A stretch of 64,000 bases of DNA, from the NCBI GenBank assembly GCA_009903825.1, contig WYEN01000115.1:1-64000 (forward strand), written 5' to 3'. This DNA comes from Desulfurococcales archaeon. GTDB taxonomy: Archaea; Thermoproteota; Thermoprotei_A; Sulfolobales; AG1. Below are positions 294 through 53,892 of this stretch, piece after piece. The notes beneath the pieces are model-generated. The model saw only the letters and a program-made list of their open reading frames with translations. It had not been told where the DNA came from and did no database searches. Position numbers and translations under genes: made by a program. Each line of letters opens with the position of its first letter. The stretch's first letter is position 1.

Positions 294-2747
294 TTATCTC
301 TCGATATAGATCATGTTTTCAAAAACATCATATTCTTCAGGATTATCGGGTCTTCCAATGATCAAATGATTTATTTTATGAAGATCTATGAGCTCCTCCT
401 TAAACTTCTCAACAAGTGGATTATCAATATAAATTTTCTTTTTAATTGCTTGTGAGAATCTCATTTCACGACTCTTTTTATATCTCCATATAACACTATT
501 GATCTTTATAGCAAGCTCTATAAGTCTTCTATCTCCCTTCTCATATTCGTCAGACGGCTCAGGAAATCTCTCTAAATGTATACTTTTTTTATAAAGTCTT
601 CTCCATATATAATCAGTCACAAAAGGCATTATAGGCGCTAACATTCTTAATACTGTGGATAATACTATGTGAAGAGTATACCATGCAGCTTTTTGCTCAT
701 TCTCTGAATATCTTCCGTCATTATTATATGCTCTCTGTTTAACAAGCTCAAGATAGTTACTGGCATAAATATCCCATGTGAACTCATATATTGCATGTAT
801 AGCTTCGAAAACATCCATATCATCCATACTTCTCCTTACTTTTTTGATAAGCTCATTCAACTCTGCAAGTATAGATCTGTCTATATCTCTGAGAGAGATC
901 TCTTCTTTCGAAGGCGGTTTGAATGTTGAGACGAATCTTGCTATATTATATAACTTAGTTATGAAGAGAGAGCCTGTTTTAAGAATTGACTCATTAAATC
1001 TATAGTCGTATCCTAGTTTTGCGGCGGCCGCCGCCCAAAATCTGAAGGCGTCTGCGCCATATCTCTCTAGATAAGGCTCTGGATCTATAATGTTTCCTTT
1101 GCTTTTATGCATAGCCTCTCCTCTCTCATCAAGTCCCATACCACTGATCCTTACATAACGAAATGCTGGTCTTCCTGTGAGCTGATAAAATCTTAAGATA
1201 GAGTAATAAAGCCATGTTCTTATTATTTCATATCCCTGAGGTCTGAGAATATTTGATGAGGCTTTCTCAAAAAACCTTTGATCTTTAAGCCATTTAGAGA
1301 CGTATAAAGATGATATGCTAGAGTCAAACCATGTATCAAACACTCTCGTCTCTCCTATGATCTTGTCTTTTTCAGCTCCACATTTAGGACATCTATCTAC
1401 TGGAGGAGGATCCTTCCAAGGTCTATAATATTTGCCGGGCTCTGGAAGAATATATTCTCCACATATACTACATCTCCACAAAGGTATTTCTGTTGCATAA
1501 TATCTTGATCTAGAGATCGGCCAATCCATCTTAAGATTCATAATCCATTCTATAAGCCTCTTCTTATGCATCTCAGGATAGAACTTCATCTCATCAATTA
1601 TCTTCAAAAGATCTTCTTTAAAATCTAGTTGTTTTAAGAAGAATTCTTTAGAATGGATGATCTCTATGGGCGTTTTACATCTCCAGCAGACAGGTATTTC
1701 TCTCTCATCAAGATCCTCCTCTTTTATTAAAAGACCTTTTTCTCTCAACAGCTTCACTATTTTGTCTCTCGCATCGCATATCGTAAGACCTTTCAAAGGA
1801 CCTGCAAGCTCATTCATATATCCATCTTTTGTTATTATAAGTCTCGGCCTGAGACCTAACTCTCTGACAACTCTGACATCTCTAAGATCTCCATATGTAG
1901 ATATCATCATAAGGCCTGTTCCGAAGGAAGGATCTACGTCTTCTAACTCTATGATCGGGACTTCATATTCATAGATAGGAACGATAGCTTTATGACCTGC
2001 CAAACCTTTATATCTAGGATCTCTCGGATTATATGCTATGGCAACCATCGCTCCTATAAGCTCAGGTCTTGTGGTTGCGATAATCTCTATGCCATGGCTA
2101 GGGATCTCGATCTTCACATAATATAGTTTGGTTTTTCTCTTTACATATTCGAGCTCTGCTTCTGCCAGAGCTGTTCTACAACGAGGACACCAATAAACTG
2201 GTCTCTCCGCCTCATAGATCAGTCCTTTACGCCATAGGATCAGAAATGTCGTCTGTGTAAGAGCTCTATAGCTAGAACTATCTGTCCCGTCTCGCCAGTA
2301 TTCAAAGGAGCATCCTAGTCTACGCCATATATTAACTAATTCAGTCTCGATCTTGTCTAACTCTTCTTTACACATCTGGATAAATTTTTCTCTACCCTCA
2401 GGAGTTCTCGAGATCTCGTGAGGATTAATATTTCTCAGTCTCTCGACCTGAACTTCTACAGGAAGACCGTTTCTATCAGCATACCACGGAACTATCACTC
2501 TATAACCTTTCATTCTGAAATATCTTGCTATCATATCAATTTGAGCATAATGTGCGGCACCTCCCACATGCCATCTACCAGATGGATAAGGCGGCGGAGT
2601 ATCTATTATTAATATGTTATCAGGGTCGCCATATTTCTCAGGATCATACAAACCTTCTTTCTCCCAGATCTCTAATAGATCCTTCTCTCTAGAAATGTTC
2701 CATCTAGTCTCCTCAAATCCTCTTGTAGTCTCTCTCTCATCATTCAA
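294..2747 (-). CDS. valS: Valyl-tRNA synthetase
   Basis: Class I aminoacyl-tRNA synthetase that charges tRNA-Val and hydrolyses mischarged Thr-tRNA. Residues 52-62 (PPYPSGRWHVG) are the HIGH-type ATP site, and HKSKGN at about 546-551 is the KMSKS loop. The inserted editing domain (about 190-330) contains ATTRPELIG. Zinc-knuckle cysteines are visible (CPRC, CWRC, CSIC, CPKC), and an anticodon-binding helical domain occupies about 600-790. The 817 residues fit the archaeal form, which lacks the bacterial C-terminal coiled coil. It is transcribed divergently from dnaG. Confidence 0.96.
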   Translation of the reverse strand: MNDERETTRGFEETRWNISREKDLLEIWEKEGLYDPEKYGDPDNILIIDTPPPYPSGRWHVGGAAHYAQIDMIARYFRMKGYRVIVPWYADRNGLPVEVQVERLRNINPHEISRTPEGREKFIQMCKEELDKIETELVNIWRRLGCSFEYWRDGTDSSSYRALTQTTFLILWRKGLIYEAERPVYWCPRCRTALAEAELEYVKRKTKLYYVKIEIPSHGIEIIATTRPELIGAMVAIAYNPRDPRYKGLAGHKAIVPIYEYEVPIIELEDVDPSFGTGLMMISTYGDLRDVRVVRELGLRPRLIITKDGYMNELAGPLKGLTICDARDKIVKLLREKGLLIKEEDLDEREIPVCWRCKTPIEIIHSKEFFLKQLDFKEDLLKIIDEMKFYPEMHKKRLIEWIMNLKMDWPISRSRYYATEIPLWRCSICGEYILPEPGKYYRPWKDPPPVDRCPKCGAEKDKIIGETRVFDTWFDSSISSLYVSKWLKDQRFFEKASSNILRPQGYEIIRTWLYYSILRFYQLTGRPAFRYVRISGMGLDERGEAMHKSKGNIIDPEPYLERYGADAFRFWAAAAAKLGYDYRFNESILKTGSLFITKLYNIARFVSTFKPPSKEEISLRDIDRSILAELNELIKKVRRSMDDMDVFEAIHAIYEFTWDIYASNYLELVKQRAYNNDGRYSENEQKAAWYTLHIVLSTVLRMLAPIMPFVTDYIWRRLYKKSIHLERFPEPSDEYEKGDRRLIELAIKINSVIWRYKKSREMRFSQAIKKKIYIDNPLVEKFKEELIDLHKINHLIIGRPDNPEEYDVFENMIYIER

Positions 2748-2890
2748 TTATGATACCACAACATATTTTCTCCTACAACATATTAAATATCGTTCATTCA
2801 AATGATCTATTGGATAAGCTTCTTGAGGTTTCTTTAAGAATTAAGCTTAAGATTTTCTAACACTAATCTTAGTAGGAGGATGACTATAAT

Positions 2891-4297
2891 ATGAAGTATA
2901 TAGTTAAAGCAAAGATCGAAGTGGAAGGATCTGTGGATAAGCCCGATATTATTGGAGCAATTTTTGGACAGACAGAAGGTTTATTCGGCTCAGAATTTGA
3001 TCTTAGAGAGCTACAAGAGAAAGGAAGGATCGGGAGAATATATGTTGAGATAAAAAATGTTGGGAATAAGACCGTTGGAGAAGTAATCATACCATCAAAT
3101 CTTGATAAAAATGAGACTGCTCTTCTCGCCGCAATGATTGAGACTGTAGACAGAGTAGGTCCTTATAGTGCTAAGATACATGTGACAGAACTTATAGATC
3201 TTAGGTTAGAGAAGATCAGAAGAATTGTTGAAAGAGCCAAGGAATTTATGAGTAGATGGAGCAGAGAGAAGACGCCAGATCTTAAGGAGATACTTAATGA
3301 GATAAGTAGTGTGACAAAAATAGCCTCAATAACCACTTACGGCCCAGAGAGATTGCCTGCAGGTCCTGAAGTTACAACAAGTGATACTATAATAGTTGTG
3401 GAAGGTCGTGCAGACGTCATAAATCTTCTCAGAGCAGGTTATAAAAATGCGATAGCGATCGAAGGTGCTCAAGGGAGAGTTCCTGAGAGTCTTATTAAAC
3501 TTGCTCAGAAAAAGACTGTTATAGCATTTGTAGATGGAGACAGAGCAGGCGACATGATTCTTAAGACTTTGATAGAGTCTATGAAAGTTGATTATGTAGC
3601 AAAAGCTCCGCCTGGAAGAGAGGTTGAGGAGCTAAGTATAAAAGAGATTGAGAAGGCTCTTAAAAACATGATTCCTTTATCAGAGTATCTTAAACAGTTA
3701 GAGAAGAAGAGAGAGGCTAAGCCTGTGGAAGCAGCGCCTCTAGCTCAGCCACGGATTCAACAGGAGGAGAGACTATTAGAACAGGCAATCAATATCCAAA
3801 CACAAGCCGTCTCTCCAAGTGAGACCATCAAAGTTGAGACACAGCCCATAGAATCAGTCTCTCAGACGGTTTCAGAAAAAATAGAGACAGAAAAGATCTC
3901 TGGAGAGACAGAGGTTAAGGAAACCGAGAGACCTGCTGAAATATCTGCAGAGGTCGAGAGATCTATAGAGAGAATTCAAATACCTTCTACAGTCGTTGAA
4001 GATATAAAAAGTCTTACAGGTACTTTGACATGTATAATATATGATCAGGGGTGGAATGTGCTTTCAAAGATTAGTGTAAGAGATCTCTATGAGTTTCTCG
4101 AGAAAAATAGTGGCGACACAAATATATATGCAATTGTTTTAGATGGAATAGTGACTCAACGTCTAGTAGAATCAGCTAGGAGAAGAGGCGTTAAAATTCT
4201 CATAGGTTACAGAATAGGATCTCAGGTCTCGACAACTAATGAAGAGATCATGATATATACTTTCGATGAAGTCCTTAAGAAATTCTCTTCTCAGTAA
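2891..4297 (+). CDS. dnaG: DnaG-type primase (Toprim protein)
   Basis: Archaeal DnaG homologue, a Toprim protein known both as a primase and as a subunit of the RNA-degrading exosome. The Toprim domain starts near residue 165 (VVEGRADVINLLRAG), with the metal-binding AFVDGDRAGD near 215-224. An acidic, low-complexity linker (about 270-370) leads to a C-terminal domain; the total of 468 aa is somewhat longer than the usual 400 or so because of this linker. A TAGGAGGATG ribosome site lies upstream of the ATG at 2891. The 3' end overlaps polB by 23 bp, tail to tail. Confidence 0.93.
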   Translation: MKYIVKAKIEVEGSVDKPDIIGAIFGQTEGLFGSEFDLRELQEKGRIGRIYVEIKNVGNKTVGEVIIPSNLDKNETALLAAMIETVDRVGPYSAKIHVTELIDLRLEKIRRIVERAKEFMSRWSREKTPDLKEILNEISSVTKIASITTYGPERLPAGPEVTTSDTIIVVEGRADVINLLRAGYKNAIAIEGAQGRVPESLIKLAQKKTVIAFVDGDRAGDMILKTLIESMKVDYVAKAPPGREVEELSIKEIEKALKNMIPLSEYLKQLEKKREAKPVEAAPLAQPRIQQEERLLEQAINIQTQAVSPSETIKVETQPIESVSQTVSEKIETEKISGETEVKETERPAEISAEVERSIERIQIPSTVVEDIKSLTGTLTCIIYDQGWNVLSKISVRDLYEFLEKNSGDTNIYAIVLDGIVTQRLVESARRRGVKILIGYRIGSQVSTTNEEIMIYTFDEVLKKFSSQ

Positions 4298-32036: not shown

Positions 32037-32451
32037 TAAGTTTTTATCAGCTCTCTTCTAAGTATATATGATATCAGCAGTGAAGAAGTTAATGATATGA
32101 TCAGGATTAAAGCAGTTATAGCGTTTATCTGTGGAGATATACCTCCTCTTCCTGTCATAGACTATATAAATATCGGCCACATATATGGAATAACAAATAT
32201 GCTGAGATCTATTTCTTCAGGATATTTATTTTTAATGACTCAAGAATCTATTTATCTATGTTTTTAATATTTGTTCTTCAATCTCTTGTCCAGCAATCCT
32301 ATCAGCAGCTTTATTAACATTCGCTCTATCATTTGATGATCTTGTGAAGACATTATTTACCACAGGACCCGGCTTTAAAACTTGGGCTATTTTGGCCTTC
32401 ATATTTATTTATTCATATTTATTTATAATACTTGTATTTATTGATGTATGA
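32037..32451 (+). pseudogene. Remnant of a polyamine-type ABC transporter permease (PotC-like)
   Basis: The last 50 codons or so, ending at the TGA at 32449-32451, read ILSAALLTFALSFDDLV and then LFTTGPGFKTWAIL, the conserved EAA-loop and C-terminal region of PotC-type permeases. Upstream to about 32040 the frame is broken by stops and shifts, and only scattered hydrophobic stretches remain. It precedes a truncated substrate-binding protein gene, so this is a decayed spermidine/putrescine-type transporter locus. No intact frame covers the region. Confidence 0.6.
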
Positions 32452-32458
32452 GATCTCT

Positions 32459-32475
32459 TAAAAAATTTATAAGCT
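32459..32475 (+). promoter_or_regulatory. TATA-box promoter of the structured RNA
   Basis: AAAATTTATAAGC is centred near 32469, which is 26-27 bp upstream of the first GC-rich base (32496) of the structured RNA. This is the canonical archaeal TATA-to-start distance, in an otherwise AT-rich stretch. Confidence 0.5.
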
Positions 32476-32495
32476 TCTGAATCTTTATATTCATT

Positions 32496-32676
32496 GGTGA
32501 CCCTGGGTCTCCAAGATCCGTAGGGCTGTGAAGTCTCTGGCGACAGAGACTGAGTTTCTGCGGTGAGGGGGCTCGGGGAGACCGTTGAGAAGTAGATGGC
32601 GGAGAGCCTGAGGCCAATAAATATGAAGAGCAATGAACCGTCATCTACCGAGAAACGGTACTACGGGAGTAGTATA
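32496..32676 (+). ncRNA. Unidentified structured RNA with a kink-turn
   Basis: GC-rich island in AT-rich surroundings that folds well. Helix A is GGTCTCC (32506-32512) with GGAGACC (32577-32583). Inside it, CCGTAG (32518-32523) pairs with CTGCGG (32558-32563), leading to a canonical kink-turn: 3-nt bulge 32527-32529, GA at 32530-32531 opposite GA at 32552-32553, then an 8-bp stem closed by a GCGA loop. A second helix pairs 32592-32602 with 32638-32648 (11 bp, one G-U), and a hairpin TACTAC-GGGA-GTAGTA lies at 32659-32674. It binds L7Ae by inference only. I see no H/ACA box, no RNase P conserved regions and no SRP helix 8 motif. Confidence 0.6.
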
Positions 32677-45698: not shown

Positions 45699-46049
45699 GT
45701 CCGCAGCAATAGCCGCGGACAGTGCTCCCAGGAGGAGCCCACAGCCTCGGGCGATTGGGAGCGGCAGGCTCGTCCCTCGGAAAACCCTCGGGACATACAC
45801 CCCCGCCCCATCAACCCCGTCTTCTACGGGAGCCCTCGCCCGCCGGAGAAAACTCCGGCGAGACGGCCGCCTCTTTTCGGGGTGGGGTTCCCGCTTAGAT
45901 GCTTTCAGCGGTTACCCCTTACGGCGTGGCTGCCCGGCATACACCCAGTCGAATGACCGGTAGACTAGAGGCCGCGGCGACCCGTTCCTTTCGTACTAGG
46001 GTCACCTTCCCCTCAGGCGGCCCGCACCCCCCGTGGGTAGAGTCCGACC

Positions 46050-46253
46050 TTTTGAGGAGGGGGGCTAGGCTATAGATATAAGCTATTATAGACATAATCT
46101 TGACCCCCTCTCCCGCCCTCAAGAGCTTTATGCCCCCTTCGGAGCGGATCATAGGTTCCTCTCATTTATTCGAGTTTACATCTGCCATCTGAGGGCGGTG
46201 AGGAGGATAAGCAAATGTCTTATATTAAGGATAATAAAGCCTAGCCCGTCCCT
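46050..46253 (-). other. 23S rRNA intron H (peptidyl transferase region, 204 nt)
   Basis: Interrupts GTGAGACAG|GGTCGGACTC of domain V. Its ends pair: AGGGACGGGCTAGGC with GCCTAGCCCCCCT. An internal stem CCGCCCTCA/TGAGGGCGG divides it. No open frame of note. This exon boundary sits only 14 nt from intron G. Confidence 0.85.
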
Positions 46254-46267
46254 CTGTCTCACGACGG

Positions 46268-46405
<138 letters not shown>

Positions 46406-47002
46406 GGCAGCCCCACCCTTGGGGGCTGCTGCACCCCCAGGATGGGAAGAGCCGACATCGATGTAGCAATCCGCGGGGTCGATGGGGACTCTCGCCCGCG
46501 ACGACCCTGTTATCCTTGGGGTAACTTTTCTGTCATGCCCAGCCCCCTCCGAGGGGGGCATGAGCGTTCGCTAGGCCGCGGTTTCCCGGCCAGGCCCCTT
46601 GTGTTCAAGGGCCTGGTCAGGCCGGCTTTTGCCCTTGCACTCTACGGCGGAGTTCTGACCCGCCTGAGCCGGCCTTTGGGCGCCCGTGTTATCTTTTCGC
46701 GGGCGTGCCGCCCCAGCCGAACCGCCCACCTGACACTGTCCCCCGGTTTCCCGGGGTTAGGCCTCCAGACCCCGGTAGGCAGTGTTTCATTGGCGGCTCA
46801 GCAACTCCCGAAAGAGCTGCCTCACAGCCTCCTGCCTACGCTACGTACCGAGGTCCAGAGGCCAATGCCAGGCTGCGGTAAAGCTCCACAAGGTCTTCTC
46901 TCCCTACGGGGGGATGCCAGCCTGTGCACTGGCTCCGTGGGCTTCACGGGGTCCCGGGCTGGGACAGTGGGGCCCTCGTTGATCCATTCATGCGCGCCGG
47001 AA

Positions 47003-48101
47003 CTCTCGGGGGGCGACGCGTGGGGGTCTAGTAAAGATCGCAGAGAGCTTCATTGTGCGTTCCTTATTGCTATTTCCTAAGCACTTCATTGCCTCCTCGA
47101 TTAGTTTCTGGCATAATTCTAACCTATAGTCACTAGATAACATAGTCCTCTCCCCCGTTTTCCCCGCCAGGCGAACCTCGGCGAGTTTACCCCAACCAAG
47201 GAGCACGGGGGAGACCTCTCCTTGGCTGGGGCCCTGCGTAGGGGTAGACCTCTCCATACGGATCACCTACCGAAAGACGTGGAGGACTGTGGTCCTCCAC
47301 GGGAACTAAAGATTTTGAGGCAGAGCCTTGGTAACCGTCCTTACGGACGACACCCAAGGTTGTCCCCTACTTCCCTGAGTCCCAAACCACTGCCTCTCCC
47401 AGCAAAGAGATACGGCCAAAAAATGAAAACCAGGAGAAAATGACACAGGCAAACGCGGCTGGACGATTAGGGTGCTTAATTATTGGGCGTCCCCACTTAT
47501 TTTAGTCATCGGCTTTAAAGTTTTCAACCCCATATATTATATTGAAGAACTGGTGCCGGTATTTATTGGAGATTTCCAAGACATAGACCCCGTGGCGCTT
47601 ATCGTCGAGATATACGCTGAACTTCTCTATGCCAAATTCTTTCAGCCAGCTACCTAACAGCTCAAGTAGCTGTTTGTTTTTATTCCACATTCTGACTCGC
47701 CTCCCGCTTTTTTCGCCTTCAGCCATGTAGAAGCCGGCTATGAATAGCCGCTTCTCCCTCTCAGTAAACTCAGGCAGTCTTGCTAAGAGCGAGGTGAAGT
47801 GCTCATATAATCTCTTGCTAGAGACTCTTACTTCCACCCTAGTACTGCCGGTGAGGATACGTACCTTAGAGGCTACATTAAGCAGGCTACAGAGACTTTC
47901 AAACAACGGCACTAAACACCGCATCGCTATAGATAAGTCTTTCTGAGTTACGACCACGCGGTATTCCGTCCGGTCTCCGCTATAGTTGAGCTTGTAGAGC
48001 CCTCCGTCGCCAATTATCCACCCGAGCAAATAAGCAGAACCGGTTAATAACCACATCAACACAGCAGGGGTTGATTTTAAACCTTCTCCCACGCAACCGC
48101 C
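47003..48101 (-). mobile_element. 23S rRNA intron F with I-DmoI-like homing endonuclease (1,099 nt)
   Basis: Inserted between GCCTTGCCGGGTAAG and TTCCGGCGCG, which together form the known I-DmoI target of Desulfurococcus mobilis. Intron ends pair (GCGTGGG with CCCACGC and flanking bases). It contains the endonuclease gene at 47502-48056 and, unlike the compact D. mobilis intron, about 450 nt of GC-rich, well-folded sequence 3' of it (CGTGGAGGAC-CACA-GTCCTCCACG among several hairpins). A 42-codon-plus frame from an ATG near 47142 (MLSSDYRLELCQKL) has a good ribosome site but no recognisable family. Confidence 0.9.
47502..48056 (-). CDS. LAGLIDADG homing endonuclease, I-DmoI family
   Basis: Intron-encoded DNA endonuclease of 184 aa with two LAGLIDADG helices: YLLGWIIGDGGLYKL near residue 10 and GFYMAEGEK near 113, keeping the catalytic Asp and Glu. 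Segments such as TEYRVVVTQK, RVSSKRLYEHF and MWNKNK match I-DmoI closely. It should cut intron-less 23S genes at the insertion site and spread the intron. The ATG at 48056 gives a length like I-DmoI (188 aa); frames open further upstream run into the exon and are unlikely starts. Confidence 0.9.
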   Translation of the reverse strand: MWLLTGSAYLLGWIIGDGGLYKLNYSGDRTEYRVVVTQKDLSIAMRCLVPLFESLCSLLNVASKVRILTGSTRVEVRVSSKRLYEHFTSLLARLPEFTEREKRLFIAGFYMAEGEKSGRRVRMWNKNKQLLELLGSWLKEFGIEKFSVYLDDKRHGVYVLEISNKYRHQFFNIIYGVENFKADD

Positions 48102-48127
48102 CTTACCCGGCAAGGCATTTGGCTACC

Positions 48128-48167
48128 TTTCTCTCGAGAGCCCCCCAATAATTTAAAGGGGCTCTCG
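48128..48167 (-). other. 23S rRNA intron E (40 nt)
   Basis: Interrupts CTCTTAA|GGTAGCC in the helix 69-71 region, a well-known intron hot spot. CGAGAGCCCC pairs with GGGGGCTCTCG around a short AT loop. It lies only 26 nt upstream of intron F. Confidence 0.88.
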
Positions 48168-48268
48168 TTAAGAGGGTCAGAGTTACCCCCGGCCTTCAGC
48201 GGCGCTTCGCCGGGTTGTACCCCGGTTTCACGAACCGCCAGTGGCCAGGATTCACCCCCCGTACAAAC

Positions 48269-48500
48269 CCTTTCCCGAGATGGGTGGGGTTCGGATCTAT
48301 GGTTAATGTAAAGCGAAGTATAAGTATAGGATAAGTATAGGCTATATTAGTTGTTGATATTTAGAAGATATCGTTTTGGACTTTGTGAGGGGTGGCGAAT
48401 TCACCTCCATTACCTATCGACTGTCTAAAAATCTAATCAAAAACCTAATTAAATACTAAGGTTTATATTATTAATCTATATTAATCATACCCCGACCCAT
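48269..48500 (-). other. 23S rRNA intron D (232 nt)
   Basis: Interrupts CCCGAAAGG|GTTTGTACGG. Ends pair as ATGGGTCGGGGT with ACCCCACCCAT. The interior is AT-rich with repeated CTATACTTAT-like units and a hairpin GAGGTGAATTCGCCACCCCTC in part. No endonuclease frame. The junction is ambiguous by 2 nt because of repeated G. Confidence 0.82.
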
Positions 48501-48640
48501 CCTTTCGGGCTTGCGGGGAGCTATGTTTTTATTAAACAGTCAGGACCCCCTGGTCACTGCGACCTGCGGTCCCTAGGGTATGCCTAAGGACCGCAGGCAC
48601 CCCTTCTTCCGAAGGTACGGGGCCAATTTGCCGAGTTCCC

Positions 48641-48696
48641 TTACGGGGGAGGGAAGCAGACGAGATATGATTTATCTAGCTATGCCTACTTCCCTC
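48641..48696 (-). other. 23S rRNA intron C (56 nt)
   Basis: Interrupts GGGCTAG|GGGAACTCGGCAAA. GAGGGAAGTAG pairs with CTGCTTCCCTC. Too short to encode anything. Confidence 0.87.
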
Positions 48697-49293
48697 CTAG
48701 CCCGGGTTAGCCCCCACACGCCTTGGGCTCCTCACCCAGGAGCACCTGTGTCGGTTCTCGGTACGGGCGCGGGGGATCGTTCCCTATCCCCTTTTCATGG
48801 GCCCCGGGACTCGGCCGAAGCCCCCATACGGGGGCCCATTCCCACTTTCGCCCGTTTCCCGCCATTACGGCACTCCACGGGCTTATGTGGTTAGCCGAGG
48901 CGACAGCCTCGGTCGGCCTATCCCGAGGCGTCAGGGATAGGGCTTGCGTTGCCGCACCTACCCCCGCGGCACAGGAATATTAACCTGTTTCCCTTTCGGC
49001 GGCACCGAGTTACGGGCCGCCTTAGGACCGGCTAACCCTCGGCTGACGACCATTGCCGAGGAACCCTGGTCCTTCCGGCGGAGGGGATTCTCACCCCTCT
49101 TTGCTGTTACTACCGCCGGGATCCGCAACTCTGGCGGGTCCACCGGATCTCACGACCCGGCTTCTGCCCCGCCAGAGCGCCCGCCTACCGGATCACGGCT
49201 CCATCGGAGCCGTGCCCCGGGGTCTCGGCGGCCGGCTTAGCCCCGACCAATTTTCGGGGCCCCGAACCTCGGCGGGTGAGCTGTTACGCACTC

Positions 49294-49335
49294 CCTCTCC
49301 GGTGAGACTCTCCAATTAAATTGGAGAGTCTCACC
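49294..49335 (-). other. 23S rRNA intron B (42 nt, GTPase centre)
   Basis: Interrupts CCTCTAAA|GAGTGCGTAACAG at the GTPase-associated centre. GGTGAGACTCTCC pairs perfectly with GGAGAGTCTCACC, and the trailing GGAGAGG can pair with the exon CCTCT, giving a bulge-helix-bulge. Confidence 0.88.
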
Positions 49336-50038
49336 TTTAGAGGATGGCTGCTGTTAGGCCCACCTCCCCGCTGTCTAAGGCTCGGGACGCCCTTTGGTTG
49401 GCACTAAGCCGGCACTTAGGGGCCTTAACCCCGGTCTGGGTTGTTCCCCTCTCGGCCCCCAGGCTTACCCCGGGGAGCCCCACTCCCGCCTTCTCAGGCG
49501 GCCACGGGTTCGGAGTTGGACTGGAGAGGCTGGAGGTTTCCCTCCATACCTCTCCAATCCGTAGCTCTACCCCGTAGCCCGCCTCCGGCGGGGCTGCGCT
49601 GAGACGCACTTCGGCGGGAACCAGCTATCACCGGGCTAGATTGGTCTTTTGCCCCTAGACGGGGGTCATGGGAGCGAATTGCACGTCAGCACCCTTTCGG
49701 GCCTCCACCGGGGTTTCCCCCGGCTTCACCCTGCCCCCGCCTAGATCGCCCGGTTTCTGGTCTCACGGCAGTGACTCCGGGCCCTTGCAGACCCCGCCCC
49801 TCGCAGAGGGTTAAAACCCTCTGCTGCGGGCAAGTCGGTTTCCCTACGGCTTCGGGGATGATCCCCTTAGCCTCGCCACTGCCGTGAACTCCCCGGCCCG
49901 TGTTTCAAGACGGAAGGCGCGACCCCGGTCCTCTGCCTCGTACTCCCCGGTCGCCCGGGTTTCCTTCGGCAGACTCATACCTTAAGGGCCGCGCCATGAG
50001 TCGCCGCACGGTTTCAGGCTCTTTTCACACCCCCTTCC

Positions 50039-50088
<50 letters not shown>

Positions 50089-50193
50089 GGACGTATTTAG
50101 CCTTGGAGGTCGGAGACCCCCAACTTCCCACGGCAAAACCAAGCCGTGGTACTCTACCCCGTAGCGCAGGCCCCCGTGGTTTCGCCTACGGGG

Positions 50194-50298
50194 TTTGACC
50201 TGGGGGACACGGCAATTAAAGTATGAATTGAATTGCTATATTTACTGTCTGTATGACATCAAATCAAAGTTTTAATAAACTTGCCGCGTCACCCCAGT
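50194..50298 (-). other. 23S rRNA intron A (domain I, 105 nt)
   Basis: Interrupts GGTGATAG|CCCCGTAGGCG in domain I. CTGGGG and GCGGCAA at the 5' end pair with TTGCCGTG and CCCCAG at the 3' end; the loop is AT-rich. No frame. Confidence 0.87.
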
Positions 50299-50709
50299 CT
50301 ATCACCCTCTACGGCGGGCCTTTCCAGGCCACTTCGGCTACCACGGGTCGGCCTGCTGGGGCTCGAGGCCCCAGCTACGGGGTCGATAACCCCACATCCC
50401 CACCGGCTCATCGCCGGCGGGTTTGGTCTGGGCTATCCCCCTTTCGGTCGCCCCTACTCAGGGGATCTCATTTTGATTTCTCTTCCTCCCCCTACTAAGA
50501 TGTTTCCGTTCGGGGGGTTCCCACCCGAGGTCTGAGTAAATCCCAGACCTCGGGCACCACGGGTTTATCCCGTGGTAGGAGTTCCCATTCGGGGATCCCG
50601 GGTTCGACGGCTGCCTGCGCCTCCCCCGGGCATATCGCCGCTTGCCGCGCCCTTCTTCGGCGCCCGAGCCGAGCCATCCACCGTGCGGCTTAATGCCGTG
50701 AGCCTCCTG

Positions 50710-50872: not shown

Positions 50873-50934
<62 letters not shown>

Positions 50935-50996
50935 GAGGCTGGGTTCGACCCGCCCTCCTCGGCATCCCGAGGAAAACAGGCCTCACCCAGCCCCCG

Positions 50997-51028
<32 letters not shown>

Positions 51029-51061
51029 GGTAGGGACGTATTCACCGCGCGATGTTGACGC

Positions 51062-51117
<56 letters not shown>

Positions 51118-51202
51118 ACGGCGGGGTTTCAGGGATTGCCTCCCCCTTTCGGGTTCGGAACCCGCTGTCCCCGCCATTGTAGCCCGCGTGCAGCCCGGGG
51201 GT

Positions 51203-51299
51203 CTCCCGGCCGAGCCTCAGGCGGATCCATTAGAATATCATATGAATCAACCTACTTTTATACAAACATCATAAGAACATCCGCCTGAGGGCCACGGCT
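51203..51299 (-). other. 16S rRNA intron 9 (site 1213, 97 nt)
   Basis: Interrupts GCCCCGAA|ACCCCCGGGCTG at the position equal to about E. coli 1213. CCTCAGGCGGAT pairs with ATCCGCCTGAGG around an AT-rich loop, and GGCC-rich bases beyond it extend the core. The exon before it is only 8 nt. Confidence 0.88.
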
Positions 51300-51307
51300 T
51301 TCGGGGC

Positions 51308-51338
51308 TTCAGCGGAGCCCTCAACACGAGAGGCTCCT
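51308..51338 (-). other. 16S rRNA intron 8 (site 1205, 31 nt)
   Basis: Interrupts GGTCAGCAT|GCCCCGAA at about E. coli 1205. GGAGCCTC pairs with GAGGGCTCC, leaving almost no loop. At 31 nt it is at or below the smallest archaeal rRNA introns I know of. Confidence 0.82.
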
Positions 51339-51495
51339 ATGCTGACCTGCCGTGGCCCCCTCCTTCCTCCGCCTTAAACGGCGGCAGTCCCCCTAGTGTG
51401 CCCCAGGGCCGGAGCCCTGGGTAGCAACTAGGGGCGGGGATCTCGCTCGTTGCCGGACTTAACCGGAGACCTCACGGCACGAGCTGGCGACGGCC

Positions 51496-52143
51496 TTATG
51501 CGAGGGCTTCCCTGCCAAATAAATCTGAAAATCTAATAGTCTTACATGCCAAGTTTGATATAAAATTTATGTATCTGGTACAACATATTTCGGATATATA
51601 TTCTCTTGCTTTCTTATAATATTTTATCTTCGGGTCTGTTCCTATTATGTTTCTAATTAATCTGGCATCTATTAATGCTTCATTTATATTTGAATATGCT
51701 ATACGAAGTCTTATCTTATTAAAATCTATAGATCCATCGCCATCTGTTCTACCTGCCAAATAACTTAAGGCATTGTCAGTTATATAGTTTAACAAGTCTC
51801 TAGCGACATTATTAATTAATCTTTTTAAAGATCTTGAATTAACGTATACTATATAATGCACACCCAGCAATTTTTTGTTGCAATAAAATTTTATATTCTC
51901 TGGCGGTATTAATTTCAATAACTGATGACCCACCAGATCTGTTGAACAGTGTTTATATAAATCGTCGCTACATGCTACGTAAACCTTTAGCTTAACTCTC
52001 TCCGGCGGATAATACTGAAGTAACCATCTTGTAAATCGTAGAATAAGCCTTTCGTCAGTATTCGAGAGACCTACACTACTACCCCACCAATATCTATCAG
52101 CTAACCACAGACCTAATAAATATGGATCTATCCTCTCCTTCAT
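51496..52143 (-). CDS. LAGLIDADG homing endonuclease in 16S intron
   Basis: 215-aa monomeric LAGLIDADG protein: first helix YLLGLWLADRYWW at about 8-20 and second YLAGRTDGDGSIDF at about 128-141, both keeping the acidic catalytic residue. It should cut the intron-less 16S site near position 1068. Its last codons form the 3' stem of the intron, and the stop TAA is the last three bases of the intron, so coding and splicing signals overlap fully there. AT-rich codon use like that of chromosomal genes, unlike the rRNA exons. Confidence 0.88.
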   Translation of the reverse strand: MKERIDPYLLGLWLADRYWWGSSVGLSNTDERLILRFTRWLLQYYPPERVKLKVYVACSDDLYKHCSTDLVGHQLLKLIPPENIKFYCNKKLLGVHYIVYVNSRSLKRLINNVARDLLNYITDNALSYLAGRTDGDGSIDFNKIRLRIAYSNINEALIDARLIRNIIGTDPKIKYYKKAREYISEICCTRYINFISNLACKTIRFSDLFGREALA

Positions 52144-52204
52144 CTCTAAAACACCTAAAACATTAAAATGATAATGATCATAAAACGTGCAGGGAGAGCC
52201 CTCT
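51496..52204 (-). mobile_element. 16S rRNA intron 7 with homing endonuclease (site 1068, 709 nt)
   Basis: Interrupts GAGGAGGTGCAT|GGCCGTCGCC at about E. coli 1068, a known archaeal intron site. GAGGGCTCTCCCTG near the 5' end pairs with CAGGGAAGCCCTC near the 3' end. Most of the interior is the LAGLIDADG gene at 51496-52143. Confidence 0.93.
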
Positions 52205-52335
52205 ATGCACCTCCTCTCAGCGCGTCAGGCAAGGTCGTCAGCCTGGCCATCATCCTGCTGTCGCCCCCGGTAAGATTCCCGGCGTTGACTCCAATTGAGC
52301 CGCAGGCTCCACCCCTTGTGGTACCCCCCCGCCAA

Positions 52336-52516
52336 TTCAGGGGGAAGTGGGAGCTGGGCGGACAGATAAAGAGAATAAAGACAAAAAACAAGTCTAATTA
52401 TCATCATTTCATCTCGCAAGATCCCTGCTAGGTATACTAATTCCTCGTTTATATCACAACATCTTAGAAGCCTAAAAGAGCTATTTAAGTTTATGCGCCC
52501 AGCTCCCAACCTCCCT
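52336..52516 (-). other. 16S rRNA intron 6 (site 919, 181 nt) with endonuclease fossil
   Basis: Interrupts AAACTTAAAGGAA|TTGGCGG at about E. coli 919, inside the common 926R primer site. GGGAGGTTGGGAGCTGGGCG pairs with CGCCCAGCTCCCACTTCCCC (one or two unpaired bases). The interior is AT-rich; a frame through it reads INEELVYLAGILRDE, which resembles the first LAGLIDADG helix of rRNA-intron endonucleases, so this may be an eroded endonuclease intron. Confidence 0.87.
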
Positions 52517-52636
52517 TTCCTTTAAGTTTCAGCCTTGCGGCCGTACTCCCCAGGCGGCGGGCTTAACGGCTTCCCTGCGGCACTGGGCGGGCTCTAAGCC
52601 CGCCCAACACCTAGCCCGCATCGTTTACAGCCGGGA

Positions 52637-52685
52637 CTCTCCGGGGCCCTGCCGTAGATCTATTTAATAGATCTACGGCAGACAC
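52637..52685 (-). other. 16S rRNA intron 5 (site 803, 49 nt)
   Basis: Interrupts ATACCCGGGTAG|TCCCGGCTG at about E. coli 803, inside the 806R primer site. TGCCGTAGATCTAT pairs perfectly with ATAGATCTACGGCA around a TAA loop. Confidence 0.9.
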
Positions 52686-52716
<31 letters not shown>

Positions 52717-52766
52717 CGGCTTTCGGCCCTCACCGTCAGGCGCGTTCCAGCGGGGCGCCTTCGCCA

Positions 52767-52819
52767 TTCACCCCGTGTGCATCAGATTCATAGACTAAAC
52801 ATTATTGGACGCACACGGT
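52767..52819 (-). other. 16S rRNA intron 4 (site 722, 53 nt)
   Basis: Interrupts ACCACCAG|TGGCGAAGGCG at about E. coli 722. CCGTGTGC pairs with GCACACGG around an AT-rich loop. Confidence 0.9.
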
Positions 52820-52854
52820 CTGGTGGTCCTCCCGGGATTATCGGATTTCGCCCC

Positions 52855-52970
52855 TTGGGGTGGGAGGCGGATCAAGTATATGACTACGTAATCTTAATCT
52901 AATTTTTTACCTAATTTAAATGAATAATGAATACCTTATTAAGAACATTATGAATAATCCGCTCTCCCAT
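52855..52970 (-). other. 16S rRNA intron 3 (site about 687, 116 nt)
   Basis: Interrupts TCCCGGGGTA|GGGGCGAAATCC at about E. coli 687/688. GGGAGAGCGGAT pairs with ATCCGCCTCCC; the loop is AT-rich with tandem TTATTCAT-like repeats. Confidence 0.88.
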
Positions 52971-53109
52971 TACCCCGGGAGTACCCCCCGCCTCTCCCGC
53001 CCTCTAGCCCCGCAGTATCTCCGCCAGTCCCCGGGTTGAGCCCGGGTCTTTAGGCGGAGACTTGCGGGGCCGGCTACGGCCGCTTTAGGCCCAATAAACG
53101 TCCCGACCA

Positions 53110-53210
53110 TACGCGCCGAGGGTCTGGAACATATGAGATGAATATGATAATCCTATGAATGATAGTCTAGGCTGAGCCTAAGTAGTATCTTAAGATCCAG
53201 AGCCCTCGGT
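53110..53210 (-). other. 16S rRNA intron 2 (site 548, 101 nt)
   Basis: Interrupts GCCCCGCGAG|TGGTCGGGACG at about E. coli 548. CCGAGGGCTCTGG pairs with CCAGACCCTCGG, and GCGCG near the 3' end can pair with the exon CGCG, giving the bulge-helix-bulge. Confidence 0.9.
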
Positions 53211-53247
<37 letters not shown>

Positions 53248-53337
53248 ACTTGCCCCCCGCTTATTCCCCCGCCTTTTTAGAGCGGGGAAAAGCCCCTCTT
53301 CGGGGCACTCGGGGTAACCCCGTCACGGTTTCCCGCA

Positions 53338-53498
53338 TTCCGCTAGAGGGCCCGGTATAATGATGAAACAAGCATCACAATAAAATTTAATTTTTGTTAA
53401 AGATTTGGTTATTTCTATGATCTCTTATCTATCTACCATTAATGGCTGGTATAGAGATCGACCTCTAAGATTTTTATAGATCATACCGGGCCCTCTAT
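53338..53498 (-). other. 16S rRNA intron 1 (site 374, 161 nt)
   Basis: Interrupts ACTCCGCAA|TGCGGGAAACC at about E. coli 374. TAGAGGGCCCGGTAT pairs perfectly with ATACCGGGCCCTCTA, and GCGGA near the 3' end pairs with exon TCCGC. The loop is AT-rich and has no long frame. Confidence 0.9.
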
Positions 53499-53507
53499 TT
53501 GCGGAGT

Positions 53508-53551
<44 letters not shown>

Positions 53552-53558
53552 GGCCCAT

Positions 53559-53597
<39 letters not shown>

Positions 53598-53892
53598 CTT
53601 GGCGGGCCGTTACCCCGCCAACTACCATGATGGGCCACGGCCCCATCCTCGGGCGCCTGTGCCACCATCTCGGCACAGGCCTTTCGACGATGACCCATTC
53701 CAGGAGTCATCGTCTATCGGGGATCAACTCCAGTTTCCCGGAGTTGTCCCCGTCCCGAGGGTAGGTTAGCCGTGTGTTACTCAGCCGTCCGCCACTCCCC
53801 CGTCGGGGGCGTTCGACTCCCATGGCTTAGCCTTACCCCGATAGCGGTCGGGTCCGCCAGGATCAAGCGGAGTCACGGCCGCACAGGCCGTG

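What the first reader, a model, noticed from the sequence alone, without database searches (positions are those of the whole stretch)
32459..32676. Unidentified structured RNA with a textbook kink-turn and its own promoter
A GC-rich island of about 180 nt has a TATA box at the right distance, a 7-bp outer helix, an inner stem with a canonical kink-turn (3-nt bulge plus tandem G-A pairs), an 11-bp second helix and a GNRA-like capped hairpin. It is not a tRNA, 5S, C/D guide, SRP RNA or RNase P RNA by any motif I can see. An L7Ae-binding RNA of a new or highly diverged type is possible, including an unusual H/ACA guide or a reduced RNase P RNA.
Basis: partly seen in the sequence, partly recalled or inferred. 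Interest (0 to 1): 0.78.

Follow-up and report, generated by a model that had tools for sequence, protein, structure and literature searches.

The report
Stand-alone guide RNA of TnpB-like nuclease
This is not a new housekeeping RNA but one of at least 13 scattered copies of a small jumping element in a heat-loving archaeon; each copy carries the guide-RNA gene of a TnpB/Cas12-like DNA-cutting enzyme and usually lacks the enzyme gene, which in complete copies lies next to the RNA gene pointing the other way.

Summary
The structured RNA is real. It has a conserved TATA box, five helices and strong covariation (34 of 42 pairs with compensatory changes in 40 diverse members). It matches no Rfam family. 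It is not single-copy: the genome holds at least 13 copies, each inside a short mobile element with sharp ends (GG|GCTGTTTC…GAGAAACGG|). In the one full-length copy (1,343 bp) the RNA gene lies head-to-head with a ~365-aa protein with a RuvC D-E-D triad, no CxxC zinc finger, and a predicted fold whose best PDB matches are Cas12f/Cas12k. The same divergent pair recurs in 45 loci across Thermoproteota, with a few outside. The window copy is an internal deletion that keeps only the left end with the last codons of the protein, the promoter, the RNA and the right end. Sister species have the uninterrupted target sites. IS607 transposons in carrier genomes share the termini. Best reading: an IS607-type guide RNA (reRNA/omegaRNA) whose guide is the flanking DNA, probably acting in trans with the single protein. 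The kink-turn arm is real in close relatives but absent from more than half of the diverse set. RNase P and H/ACA are not supported. Cleavage, guide use and mobilisation are inferred.

The parts
32384..32385 (+). GG dinucleotide at the left junction, belonging to the insertion site (IS607-type crossover dinucleotide; part of the putative TAM)
   Evidence: 27 of 30 distinct copies have G at -2 and 27 of 30 at -1; position -3 is never C; sister-species uninterrupted sites
32386..32437 (+). Left end (LE) of the element, GCTATTTTGGCCTTCATATTTATT..., with a subterminal inverted repeat (32392-32409) matching 32616-32633 near the right end
   Evidence: conserved block upstream of RNA in most copies; equals the DNA after the protein stop codon in the full-length copy L039; inverted repeat
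32438..32455 (-). Remnant of the last codons of the deleted TnpB-like gene (reads ...LIHQ*, cf. ...LRNQ* in the full-length copy)
   Evidence: comparison with L039 3' end of the protein gene
32466..32474 (+). TATA box TTTATAAGC of the RNA promoter
   Evidence: conserved TTATAA at this position in most copies with and without the protein gene
32494..32658 (+). Guide-RNA scaffold (start inferred from the TATA box), ending exactly at the right end of the element
   Evidence: 26-copy alignment A2; covariation; covariance model R1 hits in 58 of 214 genomes of the order
32501..32512 (+). P1 5' strand (pairs with 32567-32578)
32567..32578 (+). P1 3' strand
32518..32525 (+). P2 5' strand (pairs with 32556-32563); C-stem of the kink-turn
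32556..32563 (+). P2 3' strand
32527..32553 (+). Kink-turn arm: 3-nt bulge 32527-32529, tandem G-A 32530-32531 with 32552-32553, P3 stem 32532-32538/32545-32551, conserved loop GGCGAC
   Evidence: motif in essentially all 26 close copies; P3 has both-side changes in 6 of 7 pairs; arm missing in 22 of 40 diverse members
32581..32586 (+). P4 5' strand ACCGUU (pairs with 32654-32659 AACGGU)
32592..32602 (+). P5 5' strand (pairs with 32638-32648); all 11 pairs show compensatory changes in the diverse set
32616..32633 (+). AATAAATATGAAGAGCAA in the P5 loop, complementary to the LE repeat: possible recombinase-binding subterminal repeat
32638..32648 (+). P5 3' strand
32650..32658 (+). Right end (RE) GAGAAACGG; sequence similarity between copies stops here
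   Evidence: same or one-base-different terminus in IS607 elements L096, L105 and L107
32659..32679 (+). Putative guide: flanking host DNA, the interrupted coding sequence of a solute-binding-protein-like gene
   Evidence: unrelated between copies; aligns to the uninterrupted gene of sister species G001; guide role inferred by analogy with IS607 reRNA
32177..32385 (-). Left half of the interrupted host gene, inverted relative to the sister species

Best explanation
The feature is a non-autonomous (MITE-like) IS607-type element, 32386-32658, carrying only the guide-RNA gene of a divergent TnpB-like RNA-guided nuclease. SHOWN: the RNA is a conserved, covarying structure in a multi-copy mobile element with fixed ends. 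In full-length copies it is encoded head-to-head with a ~365-aa RuvC protein predicted to share the Cas12f/TnpB fold. The window copy arose by internal deletion of that protein gene. INFERRED: transcription from the TATA box runs through the right end into host DNA, so the RNA's 3' tail is a guide matching the empty insertion site. The single intact protein (contig C30) binds the RNAs of its own and, in trans, the protein-less copies. The complex cuts unoccupied sites next to a DGG motif, so that repair restores the element; the CGG at the element's own right end would not be read as the motif. Movement is by an IS607 serine recombinase acting in trans at GG dinucleotides.
For: Full-length copy with divergent protein. 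Covariance hits fall antisense and 37-128 nt upstream of the protein in 45 loci, against 4 hits elsewhere at E < 0.005. Covariation 0.577 against 0.187 shuffled and at most 0.129 for slid controls (this alignment is fitted to the model, but the MAFFT alignment agrees). AF2 model pLDDT 87; the 28 best PDB matches are all Cas12f or Cas12k chains. Catalytic D 14/14, E 14/14, D 13/14; no CxxC. Profile match to TnpBs of IS607 elements in these genomes, probability 92%, E 6e-7. Precise ends with GG. Uninterrupted sites in sister genomes. IS607 TnpA+TnpB elements in carrier genomes end in GA[CG]AAACGG|, one also starts GG|GCTGTTTTG, and one has a significant RNA-model match at the expected place. No T5 run inside the scaffold, so no obvious terminator before the guide.
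Against: No expression or cleavage data. Every annotated family model is below its curated cut-off for the protein, and hmmsearch against PDB sequences finds nothing, so assignment leans on predicted fold, catalytic residues and the weak profile match. No IS607 recombinase with matching ends was found in the window's own genome (its IS607 locus L104 lacks the termini). Some genomes have the RNA without the protein (e.g. G001, G002, G057). The DGG rule rests on 0 of 30 C at -3 (P about 0.005, post hoc).
Confidence: 0.9

Rival explanations
1. A pure MITE: the protein-less copies are passive passengers, and their RNA folds well only because they descend recently from full-length copies; the RNA of the window copy does nothing. 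(This rivals only the trans-action part of the best explanation, not the identity of the RNA.)
For: Only one intact protein gene for at least 13 RNAs in the genome; mixed P3 variants between related copies suggest recombination between lineages; degenerate copies exist (L043).
Against: Promoter and full structure are intact in most protein-less copies, with compensatory rather than random differences. That shows selection on the family, not on this copy.
Confidence: 0.3
2. A host housekeeping or L7Ae RNP RNA (H/ACA guide, reduced RNase P, other kink-turn RNA).
For: A kink-turn with the right geometry is conserved in the close copies; the RNA has its own promoter.
Against: Multi-copy with mobile-element ends; ordinary RNase P RNA present; no Rfam match; kink-turn arm absent in 22 of 40 members; gene partner is a RuvC nuclease.
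Confidence: 0.03
3. The RNA directs the transposition reaction itself (bridge-RNA-like) rather than nuclease cleavage.
For: The RNA is confined to a mobile element, and its P5 loop carries a subterminal repeat matching the left end.
Against: The partner protein is a RuvC nuclease of Cas12f fold, not an IS110-type DEDD recombinase; the variable part is the external 3' flank, not internal loops; the subterminal repeat is explained as a recombinase site.
Confidence: 0.04

Closest known systems
IS607-family TnpB with reRNA (ISXfa1, PMC10711439; RAGATH-18 IS607 TnpBs, PMC11061315)
   Same: RuvC D-E-D nuclease of Cas12f-like fold; reRNA scaffold ends at the transposon right end, where the known reRNAs continue into flank; GG crossover dinucleotide; known TAMs are GGG or AG-rich; termini shared with IS607 elements in these archaea
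   Different: RNA gene is upstream and divergent with its own TATA promoter, not downstream of and co-directional with tnpB; protein lacks the CxxC zinc finger; elements lack tnpA; most copies lack the protein gene
IS200/IS605 TnpB with omegaRNA, including archaeal ones (PMC12558985, PMC10640517)
   Same: transposon-encoded compact RuvC nuclease and right-end RNA with a flank-derived guide
   Different: GG dinucleotide ends instead of Y1-transposase target motifs; RNA does not overlap the protein gene's 3' end; own promoter
IscB/HEARO omegaRNA (from memory: stand-alone RNA copies known)
   Same: dispersed guide-RNA loci; RNA gene on the 5' side of the nuclease gene
   Different: no HNH domain seen, RNA divergent rather than co-directional, putative guide at the 3' end; no HEARO Rfam match
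Cas12f (type V-F CRISPR)
   Same: closest solved folds
   Different: no repeat array in the two full-length loci examined; protein about 365 aa without zinc finger; transposon ends

Membership tests
IS607-type TnpB/reRNA (OMEGA) | RuvC nuclease of TnpB/Cas12 fold with D-E-D triad | tested here: met
   profile match to TnpBs of IS607 elements
IS607-type TnpB/reRNA (OMEGA) | C-terminal zinc finger (CxxC...CxxC) | tested here: not met
   no CxxC in any of 14 proteins
IS607-type TnpB/reRNA (OMEGA) | reRNA scaffold ends at the right end and flank follows | tested here: met
   the RNA 3' end itself not measured
IS607-type TnpB/reRNA (OMEGA) | reRNA downstream of and co-directional with tnpB | tested here: not met
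   divergent in 45 loci
IS607-type TnpB/reRNA (OMEGA) | insertion at matching GG dinucleotides | tested here: met
   literature rule from PMC10711439
IS607-type TnpB/reRNA (OMEGA) | serine recombinase tnpA in the element | tested here: not met
   none in the 1.3-kb elements; IS607 TnpA with shared termini elsewhere in G036, G049 and G028
IS607-type TnpB/reRNA (OMEGA) | RNA-guided DNA cleavage next to a TAM | not testable with these tools
   DGG inferred from left flanks only
RNase P RNA | match to archaeal RNase P model; sole copy in the genome | tested here: not met
   real RNase P RNA at G000:C15
H/ACA or C/D guide RNA | Rfam match | tested here: not met
   only chance-level C/D scores (12-13 bits against cut-offs 36-42)
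L7Ae-bound kink-turn RNA | conserved kink-turn | tested here: inconclusive
   present in the close copies, absent in 22 of 40 diverse members; binding not testable
Cas12f CRISPR system | adjacent CRISPR array | tested here: not met
   no repeat array in L039 or L109

The most novel reading that the evidence does not exclude
A natural multiplex RNA-guided nuclease: one zinc-finger-less TnpB-like protein is served in trans by a dozen dispersed guide-RNA-only elements with their own promoters, and in one lineage the guide RNA carries a kink-turn that recruits the host protein L7Ae into the nuclease complex.
Probability: 0.25. Interest if true: 0.85.

Novelty: new variant of a known kind. Interest (0 to 1): 0.62.

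Why it matters
It supplies an RNA family (absent from Rfam 15) and a poorly modelled branch of TnpB-like nucleases in hyperthermophiles. The RNA is a separate divergent gene rather than the 3' end of the nuclease mRNA, which separates guide from protein naturally and makes trans action directly testable. The nuclease is very small, lacks the zinc finger and comes from heat-loving archaea. The kink-turn arm, present in some lineages and absent in others, makes a possible tie between mobile guide RNAs and the host protein L7Ae testable.

Tried and rejected
RNase P, SRP, H/ACA and C/D RNA: Rfam at gathering and permissive thresholds gave nothing. A pseudoknot GGCUC/GAGCC was considered and dropped because it is not conserved in alignment A2. 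Kink-turn in the P4/P5 joint rejected (symmetric GAGA/GAGA). Canonical downstream RNA suspected for G003 (L077/L185), but its sister-clade relatives have weak divergent hits, so it is not claimed. hmmsearch of the protein profile against PDB sequences found nothing; fold comparison was needed. The L045 site was too rearranged for a clean empty site. Papers searched for a divergent or upstream guide RNA of TnpB gave none in the held library; three key papers (Science abj6856, PNAS 2308224120, Nature s41586-023-06597-1) are not held, so novelty of the arrangement is not proven.

Full report
OBSERVATION. The region is a GC-rich island in an AT-rich archaeal genome, folds far better than shuffles (z = -5.8) and has no Rfam match. 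The joint between the two 3' helices, which could also be mistaken for a kink-turn, is a symmetric GAGA/GAGA internal loop.

IT IS A DISPERSED REPEAT. A DNA search gave about a dozen further copies in the same genome, most at 79-91% identity, and similar sets in genomes of other families of the order. Alignment with flanks shows that the similarity is wider than the RNA: it begins about 80-110 bp upstream with GCTGTTTC and ends with GAGAAACGG, and beyond both ends copies are unrelated. In 27 of 30 distinct copies the base at each of the two positions before the left end is G, and the right end itself ends in GG. Window element: 32386-32658.

FULL-LENGTH COPY. One copy in the genome (contig C30, locus L039) is 1,343 bp. 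Between the left end and the RNA promoter it carries a 368-aa gene pointing away from the RNA. The left end in the short copies equals the DNA just after that gene's stop codon, and the window still contains a trace of its last codons (32438-32455). The window element is therefore an internal-deletion derivative. Full-length relatives of 1,313-1,346 bp occur in G016, G036 and L110.

THE PROTEIN. Fourteen homologues (A1) keep D214, E278 and D351 (14/14, 14/14, 13/14) and have no CxxC. The AlphaFold2 model (pLDDT 87) has as its 28 best PDB matches Cas12f and Cas12k chains. Sequence models of TnpB match only weakly and below cut-off. Profile comparison with TnpBs from IS607 elements of the same genomes, most of which bear a zinc finger, gives probability 92%, E 6e-7.

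THE PAIR IS CONSERVED. Of 80 public loci encoding the protein (Desulfurococcales, Ignisphaera, Caldivirga, Vulcanisaeta, Pyrodictiaceae, Acidilobaceae, one Archaeoglobaceae and one Thermococcus MAG), 45 have an RNA-model hit on the opposite strand 37-128 nt upstream of the protein match; only 4 hits at E < 0.005 lie elsewhere. The 40-sequence alignment has both-side changes in 34 of 42 pairs and a covariation score of 0.577 against 0.187 for shuffles and at most 0.129 for slid controls. That alignment is fitted to the model; the independent MAFFT alignment of 26 copies gives the same picture (16 pairs, 0.287 against 0.204 shuffled and at most 0.100 slid). The kink-turn arm is present in close relatives but missing in 22 of 40 members.

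MOBILITY. The window insertion lies in a gene whose homologue in the sister species G001 is uninterrupted, at CCATATATGTGG|; the left gene half is still present, inverted, at 32177-32385. Two further insertions align across the junction to uninterrupted sites in G141 and G027. IS607 elements with a serine recombinase and a TnpB in G036, G049 and G028 end in GACAAACGG| or GAGAAACGG|; the G036 element starts GG|GCTGTTTTG; the G028 element has a significant RNA-model match overlapping the 3' end of tnpB. IS607 elements recombine at GG dinucleotides, and the ISXfa1 reRNA extends beyond the right end (PMC10711439). A subterminal inverted repeat links 32392-32409 and 32616-32633.

MECHANISM. Inferred from the above and from published IS607 TnpBs: the RNA is read from its own promoter through the right end (no T5 run inside the scaffold), so the host flank becomes the guide. 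The protein uses it to find and cut the empty version of that site, favouring restoration of the element. The left flank never has C at -3 (0 of 30, P about 0.005), while the right end almost always reads CGG, so a DGG motif would spare the element's own right junction. This last point is post hoc. With one intact protein gene and at least 13 RNAs, trans use is likely but untested.

NOVELTY. It works like, and shares ends and RNA features with, IS607-type TnpB/reRNA systems, but two usual features are not met: the RNA is not downstream and co-directional, and the zinc finger is missing. It is filed as a new variant. The held literature has no description of it, but several key papers are not held.

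Noticed in passing
window 45735-50705 and 50873-53873 (- strand): The LSU and SSU rRNA genes span 4,971 and 3,001 bp, far longer than the 2,987- and 1,478-position models they match end to end: several large introns or insertions are likely.
   Followed up: no
window 32177-32385: The left half of the interrupted host gene is inverted relative to sister species G001, with GG or CC at both breakpoints; possibly a recombinase-made inversion or an assembly error.
   Followed up: partly
L045:2087-2235: Another dispersed repeat of about 150 bp next to the element in G036, with roughly ten copies in G027.
   Followed up: no
L104 (G000:C25:8000-13000), 2218-4090: The window's own genome has an IS607 element (serine recombinase plus zinc-finger TnpB) whose visible ends do not match those of the guide-RNA elements.
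   Followed up: partly
L007/L185 (G003:C186): An RNA copy lies downstream of and on the same strand as a ~30%-identical TnpB-like gene, unlike the other paired loci.
   Followed up: partly
G029: A genome with two full-length proteins and several short C-terminal remnants but no RNA-model hit in the order-wide scan: probably a diverged RNA subfamily.
   Followed up: no
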